Notes under the pieces: model-generated
Told to the model about the DNA's origin: nothing
Seen by the model: only the letters and a program-made list of their open reading frames with translations
Database searches by the model: none
In this document: piece after piece, positions 4,690 to 38,560 of the stretch
Layout of the letters: the number at the start of each line of letters is the position of its first letter
Position numbering within the stretch: the first letter of the stretch is position 1
Source of the DNA: Cumulibacter manganitolerans
GTDB lineage: Bacteria > Actinomycetota > Actinomycetes > Mycobacteriales > Antricoccaceae
Length of the DNA: 38,560 nt
Reading direction: 5' to 3'
Assembly (NCBI RefSeq): GCF_009602465.1
Contig: NZ_WBKP01000038.1
Location: forward strand, 1-38,560
Position numbers and translations under genes: made by a program

Positions 4690-6066
4690 GTGTTCCCTAT
4701 CGCTGACGCCGTGTCCTACGGCACGCCGGACGCGTACCTGCGCACCATGGCCGACGGCACGATCAAGCAGATCAGCCCGTTCACCGGCACGCAGGTGTGG
4801 ACGGTTCCCGGGCGCGGGGACCGCCCGCTCGGCATCCCCGCCGTCGACCCGCGGCCGCTGCAGCACGACGCGCACACCCGCAGCTGCGCGTTCTGCAGCG
4901 ACAACTACCTGAAGACGCCTCCCGAGAAGGCGCGGGTGGTGCGGGCGGGGGAGAACTGGTCGACGCTGGTCGACGTGCCGATCGCCCGGCTGTTCGAGCA
5001 GGTCGCCGAGTTCCGCCGGATCCCCAACCTCTACGAGATCGTGTCGCTGGACTACTGGCGCCGCAACTACGGCTACCGCCTGCCCCAGGGCATCGCCGAT
5101 CGGATGACCCGGTACCTGTCGGAGCCGGCCGGGCGGGCGCACGTCCTCGGCCTGCTGCGAAGCAAGATCCCCGAGGCGCGGCGGGCCGACGTGGACGACG
5201 AGGACCTTCTCGAGCAGCAGGGCGCCTCGTTCTTCGGCGGCACCCACGACGTGATCGTCGCTCGCCGGCACTTCACCGACGACGCGATCGACGACAGCAA
5301 CTTGGCGTCCTCGGGAACGCTCACCGTCGAGGAGCACCACCAGTACACGCGCTTCGCCATCGCCTCGCTGCGCGAGCTCTATGCCGCCAACCGCTATGCG
5401 CGCTACGTCGCGGTCTTCCAGAACTGGCTCAAGCCGGCCGGAGCGTCGTTCGACCATCTGCACAAGCAGCTCGTCGCGATCGACGAGCGCGGGGTGCAGT
5501 CCGAGCTCGAGCTGGCCCGGGCCCGGGTCAACCCCAACCTGTACAACGAGGCCGCGGTCAACTTCGCGTCGTACCAGAACCTCGTGGTTGCGGAGAACGA
5601 CTACGCGATCGCGCACTCCGGGTTCGGGCACCGCTACCCGACGCTGGAGATCTTCTCCAAGAGCCCGCACAGCGAGCCGTGGAACCACACCGACGAGGAG
5701 GTCCGCGGGATGTCGGACCTCATCCATGCGGTGCACGCCGCGGTCGGCGCCGACGTGCCGTCCAACGAGGAGTGGCACCACAAGCCGCCGGACGTGGACG
5801 TCCCGATGCCGTGGCGGGTGATGATCAAGCTGCGCGTCTCGACGCTCGCCGGTTTCGAGGGCGGCACCAAGATCTATCTCAACACCATCAGCCCGGTGGA
5901 CCTGCGCGATCGCGTGGTGCCGGCGTTGTTCACGTTGCGCGAGCGCGGTCGCATCGCCGCCACGGTCAAGATCGCCGAGGAGTGCGAGTGCCTGCCGAAC
6001 TGCCTGGCCTACAACCCGGCGGTACGCCGCGCGGCCGGTGACCGCCTCAACCCGACAGTGCCTTGA
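4690..6066 (+). CDS. DUF4921 family, GalT/HIT-like nucleotidyltransferase-fold protein
   Basis: A 458-residue protein resembling actinobacterial DUF4921 proteins, which look like galactose-1-phosphate uridylyltransferases of the HIT superfamily. The start of the conserved core (DGTIKQISPFTGTQVWTVPG) is typical. A Cys pair (Cys66, Cys69 in SCAFCS) suggests a zinc site as in GalT. The HIT-like His-x-His-x-Gln (FDHLHKQL, His256/His258/Gln260) is the probable nucleotidylated centre. GTG 4690 is preferred because AAGGAAGGAGG lies directly before it; an in-frame ATG at 4660 has no ribosome site. The 3' end overlaps the convergent WXG100 gene by 20 nt. The real substrate is unknown; a nucleotidyl transfer or phosphorylase reaction is inferred from the fold. 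Confidence 0.83.
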   Translation: MFPIADAVSYGTPDAYLRTMADGTIKQISPFTGTQVWTVPGRGDRPLGIPAVDPRPLQHDAHTRSCAFCSDNYLKTPPEKARVVRAGENWSTLVDVPIARLFEQVAEFRRIPNLYEIVSLDYWRRNYGYRLPQGIADRMTRYLSEPAGRAHVLGLLRSKIPEARRADVDDEDLLEQQGASFFGGTHDVIVARRHFTDDAIDDSNLASSGTLTVEEHHQYTRFAIASLRELYAANRYARYVAVFQNWLKPAGASFDHLHKQLVAIDERGVQSELELARARVNPNLYNEAAVNFASYQNLVVAENDYAIAHSGFGHRYPTLEIFSKSPHSEPWNHTDEEVRGMSDLIHAVHAAVGADVPSNEEWHHKPPDVDVPMPWRVMIKLRVSTLAGFEGGTKIYLNTISPVDLRDRVVPALFTLRERGRIAATVKIAEECECLPNCLAYNPAVRRAAGDRLNPTVP

Positions 6067-6340
6067 CCATGGCATAGCCGGTCTGCTCGGCGATCGCGGC
6101 GATGGTGCTGGTGGCCTGGGCGCGCGCGGCCAGCTGCTGGGTGTACAGCGCGGTCTTCTGCTGATAGCGGGCGGTGCGCTCCTGCAGCCCGGCGCCGGTG
6201 AGCACGTCGAGTGCCTCGCTCACCACGCCGCCGAGGCGGGCCTGCACGCCGGCCCAGATGGCGTCCCACTCGCCCTGATGCGCGGCGGTGGCGGCGGCGA
6301 TCGCGCTGATCTGCTCGGTGTCGAAGGCGATGACGGACAC
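6047..6340 (-). CDS. WXG100-family type VII secretion protein (EsxA/EsxB-like)
   Basis: A 97-residue helical-hairpin protein with WXG-type turn Trp29-Ala-Gly (EWDAIWAGVQ), the hallmark of ESX/type VII secreted proteins that work as dimers. The second helix ends in a Gln/Ala-rich stretch (YTQQLAARAQATSTIAAIAE). The GTG start at 6340 is supported by an AGGAGG-containing ribosome site (6346-6352) that overlaps the stop codon of the gene before it, showing a coupled pair. The stop falls inside the 3' end of the convergent DUF4921 gene. No EccC ATPase or other ESX core gene is in view, so this is an orphan pair or a small fragment of a larger locus. Confidence 0.82.
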   Translation of the reverse strand: MSVIAFDTEQISAIAAATAAHQGEWDAIWAGVQARLGGVVSEALDVLTGAGLQERTARYQQKTALYTQQLAARAQATSTIAAIAEQTGYAMVKALSG

Positions 6341-6350
6341 GGCTCTCCTC

Positions 6351-6674
6351 CTAGATTCCCGCGGCGATGGCGGCGGCAAGCCCGCCGCTCTTGGCCGCGG
6401 CGGTCGCCTCGTCCGACCCGGCCTGCGCGACACCGACGAGGGTCTGCAGATCCGCGCGCAGCACGGACAGCTCCTCGGCCAGCGCCTTTCCGCCGCCGCC
6501 GAGCTCGCCGAACGCCGCGGAGGTGATGTGGCCGGCCGGAGCCGTCATGGCTGCGGTGCTCGCGTCCGCCTGGGCGAGGACCTTCGCGGTGACGCCGTTC
6601 ATCTGCGCGGTCGCGTCGTCCACGACCGCGATCGCTGCCTGCACCTGATCGAGGTCGATCTTCGGTCCGCTCAT
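6351..6674 (-). CDS. WXG100-like helical partner protein
   Basis: A 107-residue Ala-rich helical protein, first gene of a two-gene leftward unit with the WXG100 gene. It begins KIDLDQVQAAIAVVDD and has a Gly-rich turn (FGELGGGGKAL, near residues 55-65) between two long helices. There is no literal Trp-x-Gly; the turn probably replaces it. ATG 6674 is preceded by AGGGAGAG. By size, shape and pairing it is probably the heterodimer partner of its neighbour; that is inference. It is divergent from the GH3 gene across a 187-nt intergenic region carrying a strong inverted repeat. Confidence 0.72.
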   Translation of the reverse strand: MSGPKIDLDQVQAAIAVVDDATAQMNGVTAKVLAQADASTAAMTAPAGHITSAAFGELGGGGKALAEELSVLRADLQTLVGVAQAGSDEATAAAKSGGLAAAIAAGI

Positions 6675-6750
6675 CTGCTCTCCCTTGGGGTAGGTGGATC
6701 CGTACGGCCCCACCCCATCACCCGCCGGGCCGCGTCGGCGGCGCCATCGG

Positions 6751-10142: not shown

Positions 10143-12100
10143 CCGGCCGGGTCGGGGTTCGGTGAGGCGCGTCCCCTCAGTCGATGCAGGCGAATGGCGA
10201 CCTGGATGCGGAAGAAGTCGTCCGGCTCGCGCCACGCCGGCCCGAGGAGCTCGTCCACCCGGGAGATCCGTTGCAGGATCGTGTTCGAATGGAGGTGCAG
10301 CGCGCGCGCCGTACGGGAAGTGCTGGCATTGCACTCGGCGAACGTGCTGACCGTCTGCAGCAGCTCGGTTCCCCGATCCTCGTCACGGTCGAGCAGCGGG
10401 CCGATCAGCGTCCGGATGAATTCGTCTATGTCGTCGGCGTTCGGCTCGAACAGCCGAAGGTACGGGCGGTACGCCGCAGTCGCGACGGCCGCGTCGTGGA
10501 TGCCGAGCGCCGGCAGCATGTCCAGGCAGCGCCGGGCCTCCCGATAGCGTGCGGCGACCTCGTCGCAGCTGGACGCATGAGGTGCCTCGACCACGAGCAC
10601 CGGAAGCCGCAGCCTCGCGCGCACCCATCGATGGAGGTGCTTGCCGTCGGTCCTGGCCGACTCGGCGAAGACGACCAGCACGACCCCGGCATGCTCCGCG
10701 ACCAGGCTCGGCCGGGCGGGCATCGTTCGCAGCGTCCGCAGCACCTCGGCACGGTCCGAGCCCGCAGACACGATGAAGAGCCGAGTGAGCTCGTCGAGGT
10801 TCAACCCGCGGGCCCGAGCCCGGATTCGCACCTCCTCGGTACCCCGCGAGCCGGGCTCGACCAGATCATGCAGCAGGTCGCCGCGGACGCGTTCCTCGGC
10901 GTCGGCCTGCGCGTCCTGCTTCAGTCGCAGCAGCGCCATGATCCGCGCGGCATCCTCGATCGTCTTCAGCTGCACCGGGTCGAGCAGCTCGGCGGTGCGG
11001 GTGACGACGAGGGAGCCCAGATGCGTGTCTCCGGCCAGGACCGCGACCACCCCGGCGACCCCGGGGGCGGACGTCGGGACGTAACGGCCGGTGCTGCGAC
11101 TGGTCGCTATCGCAGCCACGACCTCGGGGTGGCGCCAGCATCCCTCGACGGGAAAGTGCGCCGGCGAGTCCACGAGCGGCTGTCCGTCGGTATCGAGAAT
11201 GAAGACCTCACGCCGCATGGAGGTAGCGAGCACCGCAGCCACCTGCGCCACGCTCTGCCCTCGAAGCACGCATTCGGTCAGCTCGACGTGGTCGTTGTGG
11301 GCCTGCTCCATCCTCTCGACGAGGGCAGCGAGCCGACGACGGGCTTCGCCCGCTTCCTCGGCGGAGGTCTGCGCCTGCGCGAGCAACCGGGCGCCCTGCA
11401 GGATCACCGCTCCATGGTCGGCGAACGCTGTGAGCAGCGCGATCTGCTCCGGATGGAACCTGGTCTCGGTCCGGGTCGCCACGCACAACGTGCCGATCAC
11501 CTCGTCGCCGGCGACCAACGGCACAGCCAGCACCGAGACGGCCCCCTCCGCCACCAGGACGGAGTCGGCATTCAGGTTGTGCCGGAACCGCGGATCATCG
11601 TGATATCGCGCCGAGTAGTGCAGTTGCTTGTGCGAGGCCACATGCCAGGCCATGCTCTGCCCGAACGTGATCCGCAGCCGCTCCAGCTCCGCCGAGACCG
11701 AGCCGACGGCTGCCTGCACCACCAGCTCGCCGCGGGGCACATCCAGCTCCGACAGCCAGGCGAGGTCCGCCCCCACCAGGTCGCGCGCCCGCTGCACGAG
11801 GCGCCGCAGCAGCGTGTCGAACTCGCGCTGCTCGGCCAGCTCCCTGCTGCTGGCGAACAAGGCCGCAACCTCGTCGCGACGGCGTCCCGCCCGCGACAGG
11901 TGCGCCTGCACCCGCTGGATCCGGTCGGTGATCTGCTGGCACGTCGCCTCGTCGAGGTCCTCGGCACCGATCAGGGCGGACAGCTCGTCGGGGTCGATCA
12001 CGCGTTCCTCGTCGAGCAGGTCGAGCAGCCTCACCACGACGCCCGCAGACAGGAGCCCAGGTCTCTCGCGCGAGGGGGTGCGGTCGAAAAGCTCCTGCAT
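10139..12100 (-). CDS. PucR/CdaR-family transcriptional regulator with GAF domain
   Basis: 653-residue regulator. An N-terminal helical region leads into a GAF sensor domain (about residues 75-225, including SVLAVPLVAGDEVIGTLCVA). A coiled linker (ARRRLAALVERMEQAHNDHVEL), a second sensor-like region, a CdaR GGDEF-like region and a PucR-type C-terminal helix-turn-helix follow (SRTARALHLHSNTILQRISR near the end). It is the last gene of the leftward operon after the CoA ligase (106-nt gap), so it probably controls that operon in response to a small ligand; the ligand is unknown. ATG 12100 was chosen because upstream residues do not look conserved and no clearer start exists. The ribosome site is weak (GGGGA). 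Confidence 0.88.
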   Translation of the reverse strand: MQELFDRTPSRERPGLLSAGVVVRLLDLLDEERVIDPDELSALIGAEDLDEATCQQITDRIQRVQAHLSRAGRRRDEVAALFASSRELAEQREFDTLLRRLVQRARDLVGADLAWLSELDVPRGELVVQAAVGSVSAELERLRITFGQSMAWHVASHKQLHYSARYHDDPRFRHNLNADSVLVAEGAVSVLAVPLVAGDEVIGTLCVATRTETRFHPEQIALLTAFADHGAVILQGARLLAQAQTSAEEAGEARRRLAALVERMEQAHNDHVELTECVLRGQSVAQVAAVLATSMRREVFILDTDGQPLVDSPAHFPVEGCWRHPEVVAAIATSRSTGRYVPTSAPGVAGVVAVLAGDTHLGSLVVTRTAELLDPVQLKTIEDAARIMALLRLKQDAQADAEERVRGDLLHDLVEPGSRGTEEVRIRARARGLNLDELTRLFIVSAGSDRAEVLRTLRTMPARPSLVAEHAGVVLVVFAESARTDGKHLHRWVRARLRLPVLVVEAPHASSCDEVAARYREARRCLDMLPALGIHDAAVATAAYRPYLRLFEPNADDIDEFIRTLIGPLLDRDEDRGTELLQTVSTFAECNASTSRTARALHLHSNTILQRISRVDELLGPAWREPDDFFRIQVAIRLHRLRGRASPNPDPAG

Positions 12101-12206
12101 GGATCCCCACAGATCGCCAGCATGCCGGCCTCGTCGTCGGGTTTCGTGCGGGCCTGGGTCCGGCTGGGGCCCGCGATCGAGCGTACCGCTCCATTTGTCG
12201 AGGGCG

Positions 12207-13733
12207 CTAGATCCGGTCACCCTTGGCTCTGTCGCGCAGCTCGTTCTTGCGGATCTTGCCGATGGAGGTGCGCGGGAACTCGTCGACCACGTGCACCTCG
12301 TGCGGGACCTTGAACCTCGCGAGGCTCTCCAGACAGTGCGCCCGGATCTCGTCGACGTCGATGCTTGCCCCCGGCGCCGGAAGCAGGAACGCGACGATCC
12401 GCTCATCGCGCCACGAGTCCGGGATGCCGACCACGGCCGCGTCGGCGACCGACGGATGGGTTACCAGCACCCGTTCCACCTCCGCGGAGGCCACGTTCTC
12501 GGCCTTCACCTTGATGACGTCCTTCGACCGGTCGAGGAAGTAGAAGTAGCCCAGCTCGTCCATCATCATCGTGTCGCCGGTGCGGAACCGGTCGCCGGCG
12601 AATGCGGCTGCCGTGATCTCCTCGTCGCGGTAGTACTCCGCCAGCCGCGGCTGCCCCGCGAACCGCGCTTCCCCGGGCGTACCCGCTTCGACCTCCCGGT
12701 CCTCCGCATCGAAGACCCCGAGGTCCATCCCCGGCTGGGGCAGGCCGATCGAGACGGGGTTCCGTGGGAGGTACGGCGGACTGCGGGTGCCGATCGTCGC
12801 GTCCTCGGTCATCCCCCACAGGTTGATCAGCGGCACGTCGTAGCGACGCTCGAAGTCCGCGATCTCCTCGTCGGCGAGCGCCATCCCGAACAGCATCATC
12901 CGCAGCGAGTGCCGCGCGTCGCGTGGATCCTCCGGCAGCAGCATCAGCTGGCGGATGGGGTTGGCGACCAGGCTGCCGACGGTGATCCCGTAGGTGCGAA
13001 CCTGGCTCCAGTAACGCTTCGCGTCGAACACCTCGCACACCACCACGGTGCTTCCGGTGACCACGGCGCAGAGCAGCGACAGGCTCATCGCGTTGATGTG
13101 GAACAGCGGCAGCACGCACAGCCCACGGTCCTCCGGGCGGAGCCGTTGATGCTGGGCGTTGACCTCGCCCGACAGCACCATCGCCTGGTGGCTGAGCACC
13201 ACGCCCTTCGGCCGGGCCGTCGTGCCCGAGGAGTACATCAGCACCGCGGGGTCGGAGGCTCGGACGTCGGCCGCAGGAGGCGCCTCGTCCGTGACGTACT
13301 CGTCGAGGTCGGCGGTGCACACCACCTCCGGCCGGCGCGGCTCGCACAGCTCGGCGGCCGCCTGCGCGACCGCCTGCCGGTCCGGGTCGCAGATGACGAT
13401 CTTCACCTCGGCGTGCTGCAGCACGTAGCGCAGCTCGTCCACGGCGTACGACGCGATCGTCGGGGTCGCGATCGCCCCGAGGCGGGCGATCGCGAACAGG
13501 CCGACCACGAACTCGGGCCGATTGCTCATATGCAGGACCACGTGGTCGCCCTGACGGACGCCCTGCCGGGCGAGCCCGCCGGCGAGCCGGCCGGCTCGTT
13601 CGTACAGGTCGGCGTACGACATCTCCGTCCACCGCTGATCGGCGGCCTCGAAGATCAGGCCGATCCGGTCGGCGTCGACCTCGGCCCGGTGCGCGATGAC
13701 GTGGTTCAGGGTGAGATTACCGGTTGCAAGCAC
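12207..13733 (-). CDS. Class I adenylate-forming acyl-CoA synthetase
   Basis: 508-residue AMP-dependent ligase that activates a carboxylic acid to its CoA thioester via an acyl-adenylate. Motif A3 is YSSGTTARPKGVVLSHQ, A5 is NLWGMTEDA and A7/A8 are FRTGDTMMMDELGYFYFLDR and KDVIKVKAENV. The catalytic Lys motif A10 is TSIGKIRK near the C terminus. GTG 13733 has AGGAGG 8 nt upstream. It lies 48 nt after the HyuB-like gene, so it is likely co-transcribed and probably activates the acid made by the HyuA/HyuB enzyme. In anaerobic acetophenone degradation a carboxylase is similarly paired with a benzoylacetate-CoA ligase; the parallel is inference. Confidence 0.9.
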   Translation of the reverse strand: MLATGNLTLNHVIAHRAEVDADRIGLIFEAADQRWTEMSYADLYERAGRLAGGLARQGVRQGDHVVLHMSNRPEFVVGLFAIARLGAIATPTIASYAVDELRYVLQHAEVKIVICDPDRQAVAQAAAELCEPRRPEVVCTADLDEYVTDEAPPAADVRASDPAVLMYSSGTTARPKGVVLSHQAMVLSGEVNAQHQRLRPEDRGLCVLPLFHINAMSLSLLCAVVTGSTVVVCEVFDAKRYWSQVRTYGITVGSLVANPIRQLMLLPEDPRDARHSLRMMLFGMALADEEIADFERRYDVPLINLWGMTEDATIGTRSPPYLPRNPVSIGLPQPGMDLGVFDAEDREVEAGTPGEARFAGQPRLAEYYRDEEITAAAFAGDRFRTGDTMMMDELGYFYFLDRSKDVIKVKAENVASAEVERVLVTHPSVADAAVVGIPDSWRDERIVAFLLPAPGASIDVDEIRAHCLESLARFKVPHEVHVVDEFPRTSIGKIRKNELRDRAKGDRI

Positions 13734-34290: not shown

Positions 34291-35454
34291 CTACTCCTCC
34301 AGCCAGGCGCGGACGGCGTCGTTGTCGGCGCCGAGCGCGGGCGGGCTGGTGTGCTCCCGGGTCCACTCGGTGTCACCGTCGAACATCCGGACCGGTGGTC
34401 CGGGCAGCTCGATCCGGCCGAGCACCGGGTGGTCGACGTCGACGACGAGCCCTTGGGAGCGGACCTGGTCCCAGGCGTACACCTGCTCCAGGTTCTTCAC
34501 CTCGCCGCACGGGATGCCGAGCGCGTTGAGCTTCTCGAGGAGCTCGTCGTTGCGGTACTGCGCGAACGCGTGGTTGATCGCCGGGATCAGCAGGTTGTTG
34601 TTGCGCACGCGGTCGCCGTTCGTCGCGTACGTCGGATCCTCCGGGTCGAACCCGAACGCCGGCGCGAACTTCTGCCACTGCGACTCGGCGCCGACGGCGA
34701 TCTGCAGCATGCCGTCCTTGGACGAGAACAGGCCGTACGGCGAGACGCTGGGGTGGAACGCCCCCTCGGCCTTCGGGAGGTCCTTGCCGACCGTCCAGCG
34801 CGTGCCCTGGAACGCGTGCACGCCGATGATCGAGGCCAGCAGCGACGTCCGCACCACCTTGCCGCGCCCGGTGCGCTCGCGCTCGTAGAGGGCGCTGACC
34901 ACGCCGTACGCCCCGTACATGCCGGACAGCAGGTCGGCGATCGGGACGCCGACCTTGGACGGCGTCTCGGGATCGGGGCCGGTCATCGACATGAGGCCGC
35001 CCTCACCCTGCGCGATCTGGTCGTACCCGGCGCGCCCGGCCTGCGGGCCGTCGTGCCCGAAGCCGGTGATCGACATGACGACCATGCGCGGGTTGATCCG
35101 GTGGATCTGCTCCATCGAGAACCCGAGCCGGTCGAGCACCCCGGTGCGGAAGTTCTCCAGGAGCACGTCGCTCTTGCCGATCAGCTTGGTCAGGACCTCC
35201 TTGCCGTCGTCGGACTTCAGGTCGAGCGTGATCGACTCCTTGTTCCGGTTGCACGACAGGTAGTAGGTCGCGATGTCGTGGTTCGGCCCGACGAACGGGG
35301 GACCCCAGCCACGCGTGTCGTCGCCCTTGCCCGGCGACTCGACCTTGATGACGCGGGCGCCCATGTCGCCGAGCATCATTCCGGCGTGCGGCCCGGCGAG
35401 AGCCCGCGTGAGGTCGATGACGGTGATCCCGTCGAGCGGTCCGGCGCTGGTCAT
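34291..35454 (-). CDS. Class III CoA-transferase (CaiB/BaiF family)
   Basis: 387-residue CaiB/BaiF (formyl-CoA/L-carnitine-type) CoA-transferase. It shows the N-terminal GITVIDLTRALAGPHAGMML and DMGARVIKVESPGKGDDTRG, the NRNKESITLDLK block and VLLENFRTG. The catalytic Asp lies in GYDQIAQGEGG (about residue 144). ATG 35454 has GGGAG 8 nt upstream. The acceptor is unknown; the 77-nt gap to the SBP56-type gene downstream leaves co-transcription open. Confidence 0.92.
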   Translation of the reverse strand: MTSAGPLDGITVIDLTRALAGPHAGMMLGDMGARVIKVESPGKGDDTRGWGPPFVGPNHDIATYYLSCNRNKESITLDLKSDDGKEVLTKLIGKSDVLLENFRTGVLDRLGFSMEQIHRINPRMVVMSITGFGHDGPQAGRAGYDQIAQGEGGLMSMTGPDPETPSKVGVPIADLLSGMYGAYGVVSALYERERTGRGKVVRTSLLASIIGVHAFQGTRWTVGKDLPKAEGAFHPSVSPYGLFSSKDGMLQIAVGAESQWQKFAPAFGFDPEDPTYATNGDRVRNNNLLIPAINHAFAQYRNDELLEKLNALGIPCGEVKNLEQVYAWDQVRSQGLVVDVDHPVLGRIELPGPPVRMFDGDTEWTREHTSPPALGADNDAVRAWLEE

Positions 35455-35484
35455 CTGTGCGGCTCCCGTCGTGCGGCGATGATT

Positions 35485-35499
35485 GCGTACAACCTACGC
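35485..35499. promoter_or_regulatory. Short inverted repeat GCGTA-N5-TACGC in a divergent region
   Basis: A perfect 5-bp dyad between the CoA-transferase gene and the rightward unknown operon. The 124-nt region (35455-35578) should hold both promoters. The site is a plausible operator, but 5-bp dyads are common in GC-rich DNA. Confidence 0.3.
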
Positions 35500-35578
35500 G
35501 GGCGCCGGTATCCGCTCCGTCGCGGCGGTAGGGTGGCGGCAGCACCGCGCGCCGTACGCCGCCGACGAGGACGGATCC

Positions 35579-35971
35579 TTGCTGACCGACGCCGAGTACC
35601 AGACGTATGTGACCGGCTATCCCGAGGGCATCGTGTACGCGATGCAGAACCCGGACACCGGTGACACCTGCGACTTCGCCGCCTTCGTCGACGGCCACCT
35701 CGTGCACACCGTCGGCTCGCTGCACGGCGCCGTCCGCCCGGACGGGTCGCTGCCGGAGCAGACCGCTCGCAGCTACCTCGGCCTGGCGAGCGTGCAGCTG
35801 AAGGCGGCCGCCGGAGTCCCCATCCGGTGGGTCTGCCAGCACCCCGAGGACGCCGACGCGCTGCGCGCCCTGCTGGCCGATGTCGGGCCGGAGCTGCGTG
35901 GCGTCGTGCCGTTCGGCGCCATGGTGGTCGTCGCCGTGCCGCCGGCGCCCGAGCCGCCGGCGGTTCGGTAG
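35579..35971 (+). CDS. Unknown protein (130 aa), first gene of the four-gene unknown operon
   Basis: 130 residues with no recognised family. It has an early aromatic stretch (AEYQTYVTGYPEGIVYAMQN), a beta-rich core (DFAAFVDGHLVHTVGSLHGA) and a tail ending in GVVPFGAMVVVAVPP. A Cys-His pair (VCQHPEDAD) is visible. The TTG at 35579 is preferred since GAGG lies 8 nt upstream; an in-frame TTG at 35483 would add 32 residues. The gap to the next gene is 10 nt, so it is probably co-transcribed with the repeat-domain genes. No function is proposed. Confidence 0.65.
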   Translation: MLTDAEYQTYVTGYPEGIVYAMQNPDTGDTCDFAAFVDGHLVHTVGSLHGAVRPDGSLPEQTARSYLGLASVQLKAAAGVPIRWVCQHPEDADALRALLADVGPELRGVVPFGAMVVVAVPPAPEPPAVR

Positions 35972-35981
35972 CGTTCTGCGA

Positions 35982-37259
35982 ATGACGAGGTCAGCATCGA
36001 GCCCCGCCGCCGCCATCCTCATGCCGCTCGGGCAACCGCTCGGCGAGCACCGGGACGCCGACGACGAGCGGTACCTGCAGGTCCGGCTCGGCGGCGACAT
36101 CCATCGGCTCGACGCGTCCGCCGGTGCGCTGTGGTCGGCCCTGCACCACACCCGCCCGGGCACCTCGCGCGGCATCGACCGCGGGCTGCTGCCGGCGCTC
36201 GACCTCGCCGATCGCGGCGTGGCCGACCCGCAGCGCGATCTGGAGCTGCTGCTGGACCTCGGGCTCGTCGTCGAGCTCGCCACCGCGGCCCCCGACCAGC
36301 GGCTGGCGTTCGCCGAGAGCTACCGGCTGCTGCCGCTGCAGACCGTGCTCGGGAACAGCGAGACCGACCTCGAGCGGTTCGCGCTGGTCGCGGGTGCGCA
36401 GCAGACGGTGACGGTCGACGCCGCGATGCGCGAGGTGCTGGTCTACGCGCCGAGGGCGGCGGACCTGTACGCGACCTGCTTCGTGCGCTCGGGGGCGATC
36501 GGCGCCGCGGAAGGGTTCGAGTCGCTCGGCGAGCCCGAGGCGATGGTCGAGCACACCCTCGCGGCGGTCCATCCGTTGCTGGCGGCGCACGCCGCGTACT
36601 TCGACGTGGCGATCGACGCGCAGGCGGACGCCGAGGCGGCGGGTCGTCGGTGCGATCCGGCGTCCGTCGACGTCGGCGAGGAGCATCGCGGCGGCACCGG
36701 CATCTTCCCCGTCGGTTACCAGGCCGGCGCGACCTATGTGTGGCTCGGCCTGGAGAGCGTACGGGTCCGCGTCGGCCCCGCCGAGCTCGAGCTCGCGAAC
36801 GAGCAGGCCTGGCTGCTGTGGACGGCGGCGCACGGCGTCGCCACCGCTGACGGGATCGACGACAGCGAGCAGGCGATCTGTGACAGTGCGAAGGCGGCCG
36901 GCGCCCGGTCGCCCATCTTCGACCTGGACGACCAGCAGCAGCGGGGGCTCGTCGCGCGCCCCGAGGGCTACGCCGGGCTCGTCGAGCTCGCGGCGACGCA
37001 CCGCCTCGAGCCGCTGCTCGCCGGGCTCGGCGAGGCACCCGACGGGCAGCTGCTCGGCGGGGACCCCGGACGACCGGTCACCGTGCTGAACGCCGAGCAG
37101 TACGCGGTCTGGCGTGACGCGCACCTGAGCGCGAGCCTGCTGGATGCCGCCTATGCCGCCGGACGGGCCGGCTCGGCCCGGGACCTGCGCGAGTACCTGC
37201 GACTGGTGCAGCTGCTGCTCCTGCGGCGCGCGGCGTACCTGGACCTGGTGCGCGAATGA
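35982..37259 (+). CDS. Unknown repeat-domain protein, two tandem copies (425 aa)
   Basis: I do not recognise the family. It contains two diverged copies of one domain: copy 1 about residues 14-213 and copy 2 about residues 238-425. Each starts with a PLG-like motif (MPLGQ, FPVGY) and has a beta-strand then helix with Trp (GGDIHRLDASAGALW, GPAELELANEQAWLLW). Each also has a Leu-rich block (YRLLPLQTVLG, HRLEPLLAGLG) and a repeat of the strand-helix pattern (QTVTVDAAMREVL, PVTVLNAEQYAVW). Each ends in AAYFDV or AAYLDL. The same domain forms the next two genes. ATG 35982 lacks a clear ribosome site but is 10 nt after the previous stop. The 3' end overlaps the next gene by 4 nt (ATGA). Probably cytosolic. 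Confidence 0.75.
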   Translation: MTRSASSPAAAILMPLGQPLGEHRDADDERYLQVRLGGDIHRLDASAGALWSALHHTRPGTSRGIDRGLLPALDLADRGVADPQRDLELLLDLGLVVELATAAPDQRLAFAESYRLLPLQTVLGNSETDLERFALVAGAQQTVTVDAAMREVLVYAPRAADLYATCFVRSGAIGAAEGFESLGEPEAMVEHTLAAVHPLLAAHAAYFDVAIDAQADAEAAGRRCDPASVDVGEEHRGGTGIFPVGYQAGATYVWLGLESVRVRVGPAELELANEQAWLLWTAAHGVATADGIDDSEQAICDSAKAAGARSPIFDLDDQQQRGLVARPEGYAGLVELAATHRLEPLLAGLGEAPDGQLLGGDPGRPVTVLNAEQYAVWRDAHLSASLLDAAYAAGRAGSARDLREYLRLVQLLLLRRAAYLDLVRE

Positions 37260-37852
37260 TCGACCTGCCCGACCGGGTCGTCGTCCCCCTCGGCCGGGCG
37301 ACCAGCGTGGTGTGGGATCCCGCCGCCGCCGAACGGGTGGTCTCAATCGCCGTCCCCGGCGGTGCGATCGGCCTCACCGAGGACGAGCACGCGATCTGGG
37401 CGCATGCCGCGCGCGGGGTGTCCAAGGGCGACCTGCTCGAGCGGGCGCCCGTCGACGGTCCCCGGACGGCGTACGACGCCGTGCACGGGTACGGGCTGCT
37501 GGTCGAGATCGCGACCGGCGGGGCGACGGCGCTCCGCGAGGCCGCGTCGCTGCGGCTGCTCGCGCACGCCCGCTCCGGCGTCCACCCCCGGCAGGGGCTC
37601 GTCGTCGGTGAGCCGGCGGCGGAATTCGTCCGGCTCTCGCCGGTGGTGCAGGAGATCTACGGCTGGTGCGCGGGCACGCACTCCCTCGCGATGGCGGTCG
37701 TGCTCGTGGCGACCGCGGCGAGCGAGGCGGGCGTCAACGACCCCGCCGTCATCCGCCCCGAGCGGCTCGTGCGACGGGCGTTCGCGGAGCTCTTCCCGCT
37801 CGTCGGGGCCGGGTTGGCGTCCTTCGGGCCGGCGGAAGGCCTGGTGGCGTGA
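37256..37852 (+). CDS. Unknown single repeat-domain protein (198 aa), paralogue of its neighbours
   Basis: Third copy of the operon's domain. It begins RVVVPLGRATS, has GGAIGLTEDEHAIWAHAARG (strand then Trp helix), a GYGLLVEIA strand, LRLLAHARSG, and a second strand-helix motif AAEFVRLSPVVQEIYGW. The C terminus is GAGLASFGP rather than AAYxD, so the final motif is degenerate. The first block aligns with copies 1, 2 and 4. The ATG overlaps the previous stop and the stop overlaps the next gene, so all three are translationally coupled. No enzymatic motif is visible. Confidence 0.72.
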   Translation: MIDLPDRVVVPLGRATSVVWDPAAAERVVSIAVPGGAIGLTEDEHAIWAHAARGVSKGDLLERAPVDGPRTAYDAVHGYGLLVEIATGGATALREAASLRLLAHARSGVHPRQGLVVGEPAAEFVRLSPVVQEIYGWCAGTHSLAMAVVLVATAASEAGVNDPAVIRPERLVRRAFAELFPLVGAGLASFGPAEGLVA

Positions 37853-38433
37853 CCGAGATCCTCATCGGGCTGGGGCAGCTGCTCGCCGTCGACGCGGACA
37901 ACCTCGCCGGCGACCTGCCGACGACGTCGGTCAGGGTCGCCGGCGTCGAGGCGACGCTGCGCTCCGGCGACGACTTCCGCGTCTGGAACGCTCTGTCCCG
38001 CGCGCCGCAGCCGCTGGATTCCTTGCCCAGTGCGGTTGTCACCCCCGACGCGCCCGGGCCCGCGGAGCTGCGGGGGGCTGTCGAGCGGCTGCGGGACGCG
38101 GGGCTGGTGGTCGGCGTCGCCGAGGGTGTGGCGCACCTGGAGCTGGCGATGCGGATCCGGCTGCTCCCGTTGTGGCGGGCCAACACCGCAGAGCTGGCGA
38201 CGCCGGAGCGATACCCGATCGGCACCGCGACGACGACCGTCCTGTCGCTGACCGGTCCGCAGCACGCGGTGTGGTCGATCCTCGACGAGCGCAATCGGAT
38301 CGCGGACGTCGCGGTCGGGACCGCCGTCCTCGCCGGGGACGACGACGTGGAGCGGCACCTGCCCGCCGCGTGGGCCGGCTGCATCGAGCTGGTGCGCCTC
38401 GGCGCGGCCTACTTCGACGTCGTGATCGCCTGA
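37849..38433 (+). CDS. Unknown single repeat-domain protein (194 aa), paralogue of its neighbours
   Basis: Fourth copy. It starts by GTG at 37849, overlapping the previous stop (GTGA). Visible motifs are ILIGLGQLLA, SVRVAGVEATLRSGDDFRVW, LRDAGLVVGV, MRIRLLPLWRANTAE, TVLSLTGPQHAVWSILDE and the C-terminal CIELVRLGAAYFDVVIA. The match to copy 1 is strongest at the C terminus (AAYFDV). The two strand-helix-Trp halves in each copy look like tandem winged-helix-like units, but that fold is a guess. No transmembrane segment is obvious. Confidence 0.72.
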   Translation: MTEILIGLGQLLAVDADNLAGDLPTTSVRVAGVEATLRSGDDFRVWNALSRAPQPLDSLPSAVVTPDAPGPAELRGAVERLRDAGLVVGVAEGVAHLELAMRIRLLPLWRANTAELATPERYPIGTATTTVLSLTGPQHAVWSILDERNRIADVAVGTAVLAGDDDVERHLPAAWAGCIELVRLGAAYFDVVIA

Positions 38434-38465
38434 CCGCGGCAGCCACCCAGAGATCCGCGGCGTAC

Positions 38466-38477
38466 TTCGGTACCGAA
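38466..38477. promoter_or_regulatory. Perfect palindrome TTCGGTACCGAA
   Basis: A 12-bp perfect dyad after the repeat-domain operon and about 57 nt before the next gene. A second perfect 10-bp dyad, CGTTGCAACG, lies at 38500-38509. Both sit in a stretch of 55% GC. They suggest an operator or promoter region for the following gene. Confidence 0.4.
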
Positions 38478-38533
38478 TCATCCCTTGGGTTCTAGGGGTC
38501 GTTGCAACGCCTTTGATCAGGAGGACGTTGCAG

Positions 38534-38560
38534 GTGGGTACGTATCAGCGATTTGGTCGC
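38534..38560 (+). CDS. Start of a gene cut by the window edge
   Basis: AGGAGG at 38519-38524 lies 9 nt before GTG 38534, which opens a frame of nine codons (VGTYQRFGR) to the window end. The ribosome site is strong and the upstream region has two palindromes. The product cannot be recognised. An in-frame TTG at 38528 is too close to the ribosome site to be the start. Confidence 0.4.

What the first reader, a model, noticed from the sequence alone, without database searches (positions are those of the whole stretch)
35982..38433. Operon of three overlapping genes carrying four copies of one unknown domain
Reading the proteins side by side, copies 1 and 2 (425-aa protein), the 198-aa protein and the 194-aa protein share the same order of motifs: a PLG-like start, a strand plus helix with Trp, a GLVVE-like strand, an LRLLPL block, a second strand-helix-Trp block and (copies 1, 2, 4) a C-terminal AAY[FL]D. 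Genes overlap by 4 nt, so the products are made together in fixed ratio. I recognise no family. Tandem duplication followed by divergence within one coupled operon suggests a hetero-oligomer of paralogous subunits.
Basis: partly seen in the sequence, partly recalled or inferred. Interest (0 to 1): 0.72.

Follow-up and report, generated by a model that had tools for sequence, protein, structure and literature searches.

The report
Protein quartet beside giant secreted proteins
Four related small proteins that match no family in the databases searched are encoded, in relatives of this bacterium, beside a type VII secretion system and its enormous secreted protein, and they probably hold sticky membrane-inserting parts of that protein safe before export.

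Summary
Three overlapping genes (35982-38433) encode four copies of one roughly 200-aa unit that no Pfam or NCBIfam model recognises. Each unit is itself a tandem: AlphaFold models of two units (pLDDT 88 and 93) show two winged-helix halves resembling RiPP peptide-recognition (RRE/PqqD-like) domains.

The meaning lies outside the window, which ends in a repeated element. In the other four genomes of the family the array lies in a type VII (ESX) locus with EccB, EccD, a subtilase and a giant protein. Units occur in 54 of 397 genomes of the order. Of 33 multi-unit loci I fetched at length, 24 carry ESX core genes and 22 a bordering frame over 1,500 aa (longest 10,954).

In 12 of 16 giants beside four-unit arrays, four glycine-zipper-like hydrophobic modules cluster. 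Five solitary units precede an ORF with one module.

Best reading: soluble, acidic partners that shield these modules before export, like ExiAB in Staphylococcus but with another fold. Binding is untested, a strict 1:1 rule is not established, Modestobacter keeps a unit pair without EccB, and targeting or pure immunity remain possible.

The parts
35483..35971 (+). 162-aa protein heading the operon (TTG start as listed; true start unsure); weakly like a Tox-REase-5-like stretch of the G003 giant, whose D/DAK letters it lacks (by eye)
   Evidence: Homologs directly upstream of the array in G001, G002 and G004, none found in G003; no Pfam hit; own-profile match to the G003 giant at aa 1532-1575 E 0.0025 and 1431-1503 E 0.2; Pfam Tox-REase-5 on that giant E 0.21, below cut-off
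35982..36698 (+). unit copy 1 (N-terminal part of the 425-aa protein): two winged-helix halves, RRE-like
   Evidence: AlphaFold pLDDT 87.8, pTM 0.82; best structural row PqqD 5sxy Z 8.3, 92 aligned, rmsd 2.8
36699..37259 (+). unit copy 2 (C-terminal part of the 425-aa protein), stop included
   Evidence: hhalign to copy 1 94.4% and to copy 4 96.5%; a separate gene in G003 and G004
37256..37852 (+). unit copy 3, 198 aa, 4-nt overlap with copy 2
   Evidence: hhalign to copy 1 70.9%, weak to copies 2 and 4; aligned in A1 and A2
37849..38433 (+). unit copy 4, 194 aa, GTG start, 4-nt overlap with copy 3
   Evidence: AlphaFold pLDDT 92.9, pTM 0.87; TigE 8vpo Z 8.6 (80 aligned, rmsd 3.1) for 1-92, lasso B1 6jx3 Z 7.7 (82 aligned, rmsd 3.5) for 103-189
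38484..38560 (.). end of a repeated (insertion-sequence-like) element that stops the contig where relatives have the giant gene's 3' end
   Evidence: last 77-79 bases found identically at five other places of the same genome, two of them at base 1 of a contig

Best explanation
The four units are soluble, acidic, dedicated partner proteins of a giant type VII (ESX, T7SSa) exported protein. Each unit is a tandem of two RRE-like winged-helix domains, a fold that in RiPP pathways grips a peptide strand. In the cytoplasm each unit would hold one hydrophobic glycine-zipper module of the giant (four modules, four units), keeping it soluble and harmless to the producer until EccC exports the giant. 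The units would thus act as chaperone and cytoplasmic immunity in one, as ExiAB does for EsxX of the Firmicutes T7SSb. SHOWN by computation: four homologous units, the internal duplication, a winged-helix fold, linkage to ESX genes and to the giant, four clustered and partly interrelated modules in most giants beside four-unit arrays. INFERRED: the peptide-gripping character, physical binding, unit-to-module pairing, export of the giant and release at export, and that the giant is an antibacterial toxin.
For: Linkage: in G001-G004 the array borders the giant gene; a subtilase, EccB and EccD follow, and EccC wherever the stretch reaches it (G001, G003, G004, second G002 locus) (families by Pfam on examples). 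Of 33 multi-unit loci fetched at length, 24 carry ESX core genes in the same stretch and 22 have an open frame over 1,500 aa bordering the array. Dedicated pairing: G002 has two giants, each with its own four-unit array. The window's own genome has the giant's N-terminus, MycP, EccB and EccD on contig C67. Modules: 12 of 16 giants beside four-unit arrays show a cluster of four hydrophobic segments (picked by eye); modules 1-2, 1-3, 2-3 (20 columns only) and 2-4 match at 71.6-86.5%, 1-4 and 3-4 do not (no composition control). A profile from these 48 modules finds four in G004, which was not in training (E 2e-4, 4e-4, 9e-10, 0.01), and 6 of 9,468 non-giant frame entries (4 distinct), one of them the ORF after the solitary unit of L097. 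Iterated, it also recruits the ORF after solitary units in L081, L086, L087 and L096. Fold: for copy 4, 19 of the top 22 structural rows are RiPP enzymes or RREs (that the matched parts are RREs is recalled for most); for copy 1 the top row is PqqD. Units are acidic: median pI 4.8, 98% of 93 under pI 6. Precedent: ExiAB sequesters the EsxX glycine zipper (PMC12744356, abstract and passages).
Against: No binding was modelled or measured. Module counts do not match unit counts everywhere (E up to 0.05): G268 two units, 0 modules; G325 two, 0 (1 after iteration); G388 two, 5; G392 two, 3; G204 two, 3; G001, G002 and G002b four units, 1-2 hits. The profile was trained on giants of four-unit loci; leave-family-out profiles find only 0-2 modules per giant. 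ORFs after solitary units have a hydrophobic segment in 11 of 17 cases against 70 of 163 background ORFs, Fisher p 0.12. Units and EccB do not co-occur across whole genomes: 36 of 54 unit genomes have EccB against 236 of 343 others. 14 of 15 genus-g27 (Modestobacter) genomes with a unit pair lack EccB, yet its first unit is under purifying selection. Six of the 33 loci have neither giant nor ESX genes, and 11 further g27 pairs, all in genomes without EccB, were not fetched at length, so 24 of 33 overstates the share among all arrays. RRE matches are Z 6-8.6, near the level that common arrangements reach (notes); for copy 1, ranks 2-9 are other proteins; Foldseek gives nothing below E 0.001.
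Confidence: 0.45

Rival explanations
1. Immunity first: the units are cytoplasmic immunity proteins that neutralise Gly-zipper toxin modules, also those arriving from neighbours, and play no part in secretion.
For: Orphan immunity genes would look so. Units lie at the 3' end of the giant gene, where immunity genes often sit (recalled). ExiAB is called an immunity pair.
Against: One family serves giants of very different length. In four f14 genomes (G325, G388, G392, G396) the units sit next to eccD rather than at the giant's end, where a machinery-linked role is likelier. The Modestobacter genome that keeps a giant (G268) shows no module in it.
Confidence: 0.25
2. Targeting adaptors: like EspG, the units recognise a peptide or the N-terminal helical part of the giant and bring it to EccC; the Gly-zipper modules are incidental.
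For: RRE domains are peptide binders (PMC12710340, abstract and one introduction passage). No EspG gene is found in G000-G004, so the EspG post may be vacant. 19 of 24 giant frames examined, module-less G268 included, have a hydrophobic segment near the N-terminus (of the other five, G002 and G077 have their N-terminus in another frame, G045 is truncated, G264 and G388 show none).
Against: Up to four diverged units per substrate is more than one targeting step needs (inference); unit copies keep separate identities by array position.
Confidence: 0.2
3. The units are winged-helix transcription regulators of the locus.
For: Winged-helix fold; some solitary units lie beside XRE-like regulator genes (family by eye); weak profile hits to RstA (E 0.2) and a MarR-family protein (E 0.38); HTH_20 in 2 of 74 units at E 0.062.
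Against: Median pI 4.8 over 93 units; for copy 4 structural ranking prefers RiPP recognition domains to DNA-binding winged helices; four tandem coupled copies are unusual for regulators (inference).
Confidence: 0.05
4. One reading: the four paralogs form a hetero-oligomer with each other, with the giant as at most an indirect partner.
For: 4-nt overlaps, copy number and order kept within genera, copies 1 and 2 in one chain in genus g1.
Against: Not tested. Array size varies (1, 2, 4) and solitary units exist, so a quartet is not needed in every setting.
Confidence: 0.15

Closest known systems
ExiA/ExiB (DUF5085), immunity pair of the T7SSb toxin EsxX, Staphylococcus aureus (PMC12744356: abstract and passages seen)
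   Same: Soluble paralogous proteins, each a duplicated small fold, encoded beside a T7SS substrate with a glycine-zipper segment
   Different: GyrI-like duplicated SHS2 fold instead of tandem RRE-like winged helix; Firmicutes T7SSb; one zipper and one pair instead of four modules and four units; binding shown there, not here
EspG (PF14011) of mycobacterial ESX systems and its structural relative EsaE (PMC10653861: abstract and one section seen)
   Same: Dedicated partner proteins of T7SS substrates; here too the genes lie in ESX loci, next to eccD in four genomes
   Different: No sequence or profile similarity; structural relation not resolved here
RiPP recognition elements (PqqD, TigE, MccB N-domain, TbiB1, TruD; PMC12710340 abstract and one passage seen)
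   Same: Winged-helix halves with strands before three helices; recurrent among the best solved matches for both halves
   Different: No match to RRE or PqqD sequence models beyond 1 of 74 at E 0.077; tandem in one chain; locus linked to T7SS
Eag chaperones of T6SS effectors (PMC7773334: abstract seen)
   Same: Small dedicated chaperones that shield effector transmembrane segments before export
   Different: Other secretion system and family; no Eag-family match in the Pfam scan of 74 units

Membership tests
RiPP recognition element (RRE / PqqD) | strands then three helices, winged-helix order (definition quoted in PMC12710340) | tested here: met
   DSSP of both models: strands then three helices in both halves, with extra strands. 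Structural rows up to Z 8.6 are near the noise level, so this supports RRE-like, not RRE
RiPP recognition element (RRE / PqqD) | match to curated RRE/PqqD sequence models | tested here: not met
   74 units against Pfam and NCBIfam at E up to 0.1: only weak scattered rows; TIGR04248 (PqqD-related) in 1 of 74 at E 0.077
RiPP recognition element (RRE / PqqD) | encoded with a RiPP precursor and modifying enzymes | tested here: inconclusive
   Neighbours identified are ESX genes and giants; RiPP enzymes were not searched for
EspG (PF14011) | match to the EspG sequence family | tested here: not met
   PF14011 found in 28 of 101 genomes (25 over cut-off) but in none of G000-G004; hhalign of 93 units vs 22 EspG 0.6%; not among the Pfam rows for 74 units
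EspG (PF14011) | EspG fold | tested here: inconclusive
   EspG chains not among the 50 rows shown for either model, which excludes nothing
EspG (PF14011) | gene inside an ESX locus | tested here: met
   24 of 33 multi-unit loci fetched at length carry ESX core genes in the same stretch; not all do
ExiAB (DUF5085) | match to the family's sequence models | tested here: not met
   No DUF5085 among the Pfam rows for 74 units
ExiAB (DUF5085) | sequesters the glycine zipper of a T7SS substrate | not testable with these tools
   Neighbouring giants carry such modules in most four-unit loci; binding needs experiment or co-folding
Eag (T6SS chaperone) | match to the family's models and T6SS context | tested here: not met
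   No such family among the Pfam rows for 74 units; context is T7SS

The most novel reading that the evidence does not exclude
An undescribed class of actinobacterial T7SS partner: a peptide-gripping RRE-like fold, doubled within each unit and amplified into two- or four-gene arrays that co-duplicated with Gly-zipper modules of giant exported proteins of up to about 11,000 aa, one unit per module, so that the array is a ready-made set of caps for one substrate.
Probability: 0.3. Interest if true: 0.85.

Novelty: new variant of a known kind. Interest (0 to 1): 0.68.

Why it matters
How actinobacteria without EspG keep giant, partly hydrophobic T7SS substrates soluble and export-ready is open. 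A compact unit family tied to them gives a testable answer, would extend the RRE fold beyond RiPP biosynthesis if the fold call holds, and gives a marker for finding T7SS giants in genomes where current family models leave these genes unnamed.

Tried and rejected
EspG membership was the first idea after ESX was seen; sequence and profile tests failed. Pfam and NCBIfam top rows for copy 4 (glycosyltransferase 9, heptosyltransferase, E about 0.04) are below cut-off and were rejected. PDB sequence searches: nothing for the 425-aa protein, three weak winged-helix rows for the profile, E 0.2-0.38.

A strict unit = module count rule was tested and not established. Naive hydrophobic-segment counts do not separate four-unit from two-unit giants. 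The hydrophobic-segment test on ORFs after solitary units was not significant. A genome-level link between units and EccB is absent.

EspG is not among the rows shown; this excludes nothing. No plasmid record matched the 425-aa protein. The first genome-contig scan with it found nothing. No sigma-70-like promoter or terminator was found at 35300-38560. Literature: 'type VII secretion' with 'RiPP recognition element' gave one paper, on Staphylococcus chromogenes by title; with 'glycine zipper' 27 papers, 10 listed, Firmicutes or reviews by title except one on Caulobacter; with 'glycine zipper', 'actinobacteria' and 'WXG100' two papers; further searches. No listed title describes this family; only PMC12744356, PMC10653861, PMC7773334 and PMC12710340 were opened, in part, so I do not claim it is absent from print.

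Rows dropped or chosen: units covering under about 90% of the profile were left out of the 93-unit set (107 domain hits, 93 kept) and near-identical ones out of A2 (93 to 70). Partial units stayed in the position tree. The 12 giants for the module profile were picked by eye because they showed four clear segments. The 33 loci were my choice; 11 further g27 pairs, G232 and others were not fetched at length, and two of the 54 unit genomes (G024, G260) rest on single weak hits (E 2e-4, 8e-4). L095 and L170 were 100-base placeholder fetches and hold nothing.
Full report
WHAT IS THERE. Three plus-strand genes overlap by 4 nt (ATGA at 37256, GTGA at 37849): 425, 198 and 194 aa. The 425-aa protein holds two copies of the unit, the other two one each. 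All-against-all hhalign of three-species profiles supports homology for copies 1-2, 1-3, 1-4 and 2-4 and only weakly for 2-3 and 3-4; 20 control comparisons stay at or below 2.0%. A 20-row alignment of units from five genomes has two invariant columns, G17 and W51; in 74 units the consensus runs PVGxxLG ... VRxG ... VWxLAHG ... GLL ... FAxxHRLxPLxxGLGN ... YLD. Each unit is itself duplicated: its N- and C-halves match at 73.6%, E 2.9e-5, ten controls at most 5.1%. The operon therefore holds eight half-domains. A 162-aa gene ends 10 nt upstream; its family heads the array in G000, G001, G002 and G004 and was not found in G003.

FAMILY. Scans of the window proteins and of 74 units against Pfam and NCBIfam give no family over cut-off. 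The A1 profile finds units in 54 of 397 genomes of the order, 19 of 85 genera; two of the 54 rest on single weak hits (E 2e-4 and 8e-4), and only seven candidates per genome were scored, so high counts are lower bounds. A class-wide draw of 394 genomes, which includes members of the same order, gave 2 at E up to 1e-6: the window's own and G673, of another family. All five genomes of the window's family carry a four-unit array, and G002 carries two. In G003 and G004 the 425-aa protein is two genes. On a tree of 78 units, array-position labels need 18 changes against 49.9 in shuffles, none of 200 as low; deep branches are unresolved.

FOLD. AlphaFold models of copy 1 (20-row alignment, pLDDT 87.8, pTM 0.82) and copy 4 (74 rows, pLDDT 92.9, pTM 0.87) have the same order of elements. 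Foldseek finds nothing below E 0.001; its top rows are Rickettsia methyltransferases. In the VIA-align second look, copy 4 has TigE Z 8.6 (80 aligned, rmsd 3.1), MccB 8.0-8.4, lasso B1 7.7 (82, 3.5) and TbiB1 7.5 (85, 3.7); 19 of its top 22 rows are RiPP enzymes or RREs. Copy 1 has PqqD 5sxy first, Z 8.3 (92, 2.8), then eight rows of other proteins (Rv2067c, GdmN, Rickettsia PKMTs, Z 7.2-7.9), with RiPP rows from rank 10 on, 18 of 50 in all. That the matched parts of these chains are RRE domains is recalled for most. The rows cover both halves. These Z values are only just above what common arrangements reach, and DNA-binding winged helices follow at about 5.6-6.4 for copy 4, so I call the fold RRE-like, not RRE. 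The units are acidic (median pI 4.8 of 93), which speaks against DNA binding.

NEIGHBOURHOOD. The window is a whole contig (C38, 38,560 bases). Its last 77-79 bases recur at five other places of the same genome, two of them at base 1 of a contig, so assembly stops in a repeated element about 50 bases after the array. In the other four genomes of the family the array is convergent with a giant gene, beyond which lie a subtilase (MycP-like), EccB and EccD, and EccC wherever the stretch reaches it. Pfam on examples confirms WXG100_2 at the N-terminus of five of five giants tested (E 8.7e-13 to 8.6e-24; G001, the second G002 locus, G003, G004, G204), EccB, EccD/YukD, FtsK-type EccC, peptidase S8, WXG100 and YbaB. 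My N-terminal profile did not find this domain in the G015 and G037 frames, and in G002 and G077 it lies in a separate frame. In the window's genome the WXG100_2 start of the giant (a 2,879-aa frame running off the contig), MycP, EccB and EccD lie on contig C67; the giant's conserved C-terminus was found in the four other genomes but not in this one.

I fetched 33 loci with two or more units at length. 24 carry ESX core genes in the same stretch. 22 have an open frame over 1,500 aa bordering the array (within 1.6 kb). In G325, G388 and G392 the units sit beside eccD with the giant further along; in G396 they sit beside eccD near a contig end. The two G045 loci have a giant frame but end near contig edges; the window ends at its repeat. 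Six have neither giant nor ESX genes: G037:C6, G040, G224, G370, G013:C66 and G026:C66. Another 11 unit pairs of genus g27 were not fetched at length and lie in genomes without EccB, so the share with ESX among all arrays is lower. Giant open frames run from 1,859 to 10,954 aa, stop to stop. G002 carries two giants, each with its own four-unit array.

THE MODULES. The giants carry hydrophobic Gly/Ala-rich segments. In 12 of 16 giants beside four-unit arrays four such segments cluster towards the C-terminus (chosen by eye). Profiles of the four match for pairs 1-2 (84.7%), 1-3 (86.5%), 2-3 (73.7%, over 20 columns only) and 2-4 (71.6%), not for 1-4 and 3-4; no composition control was run on these. 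A profile from these 48 modules finds (E up to 0.05) exactly four in 13 of the 16 giants, 12 of them training; G004, the 13th, was not. The other three have 1, 2 and 2. The seven two-unit giants have 3, 2, 2, 0, 0, 5 and 3. Of 9,468 other frame entries (duplicates included) 6 are hit, four distinct: a frame at the 3' end of the G045 giant, the ORF directly after the solitary unit of L097, an antisense frame and one weak row. Iteration adds the ORFs after solitary units in L081, L086, L087 and L096, and a probable false positive in L091. Leave-family-out profiles find at most two modules per giant, so the clean '4' rests partly on training and a strict 1:1 rule is not established. The simple hydropathy test on ORFs after solitary units is 11 of 17 against 70 of 163, p 0.12.

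MECHANISM. The best-supported reading is a soluble partner set that shields hydrophobic Gly-zipper modules of a T7SS substrate in the producer. The closest precedent is ExiAB, a soluble paralogous heterodimer that sequesters the glycine zipper of EsxX and protects the producer before export (PMC12744356, abstract and passages). Eag chaperones do the like for T6SS effectors (PMC7773334, abstract). EspG and EsaE are the other T7SS chaperones compared (PMC10653861, abstract and one section); EspG is absent from G000-G004 by profile and shows no profile similarity to the units.

AGAINST. Units occur without EccB in 14 of 15 g27 genomes with a pair. So it does something without a T7SS of its own, perhaps as orphan immunity. 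G268, the one g27 genome with EccB, has the ESX genes, a 2,700-aa giant frame and two units but no module. Across genomes EccB is no commoner with units (36 of 54) than without (236 of 343). Targeting and pure immunity therefore stay open, and no complex was modelled.

Noticed in passing
G015:C1, frame 7470109-7502970 (L171, L163, L068): A single open frame of 10,954 aa beside a four-unit array and ESX genes, among the longest bacterial frames I know of (recalled)
   Followed up: partly
window 35483-35971; L021:8553-8996 and 12044-12781: 162-aa protein family heading the array; looks by eye like a restriction-endonuclease-fold toxin domain without its catalytic letters (weak profile evidence only); G004 has two copies
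   Followed up: partly
window 38484-38560; G000 contigs C71, C95, C78, C90, C51: Repeated insertion-sequence-like end; the giant's C-terminus was not found in this genome, so the element may have interrupted or displaced it
   Followed up: partly
L079, L081, L087, L097 (upstream of the unit); L063, L098, L099: Solitary units are preceded by an 86-105-aa helical-looking ORF, or lie near XRE-like regulator genes, two of them with a small DUF397-like ORF (names by eye)
   Followed up: partly
   Followed up: partly
G268:C1 giant, last 300 aa of the frame: Gly/Pro/Arg-rich stretch that reads like a shifted frame, and no Gly-zipper module
   Followed up: no
window 6050-6713 (-): Two small ORFs that by eye resemble WXG100-type helical proteins; Pfam finds no WXG100 match
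   Followed up: partly
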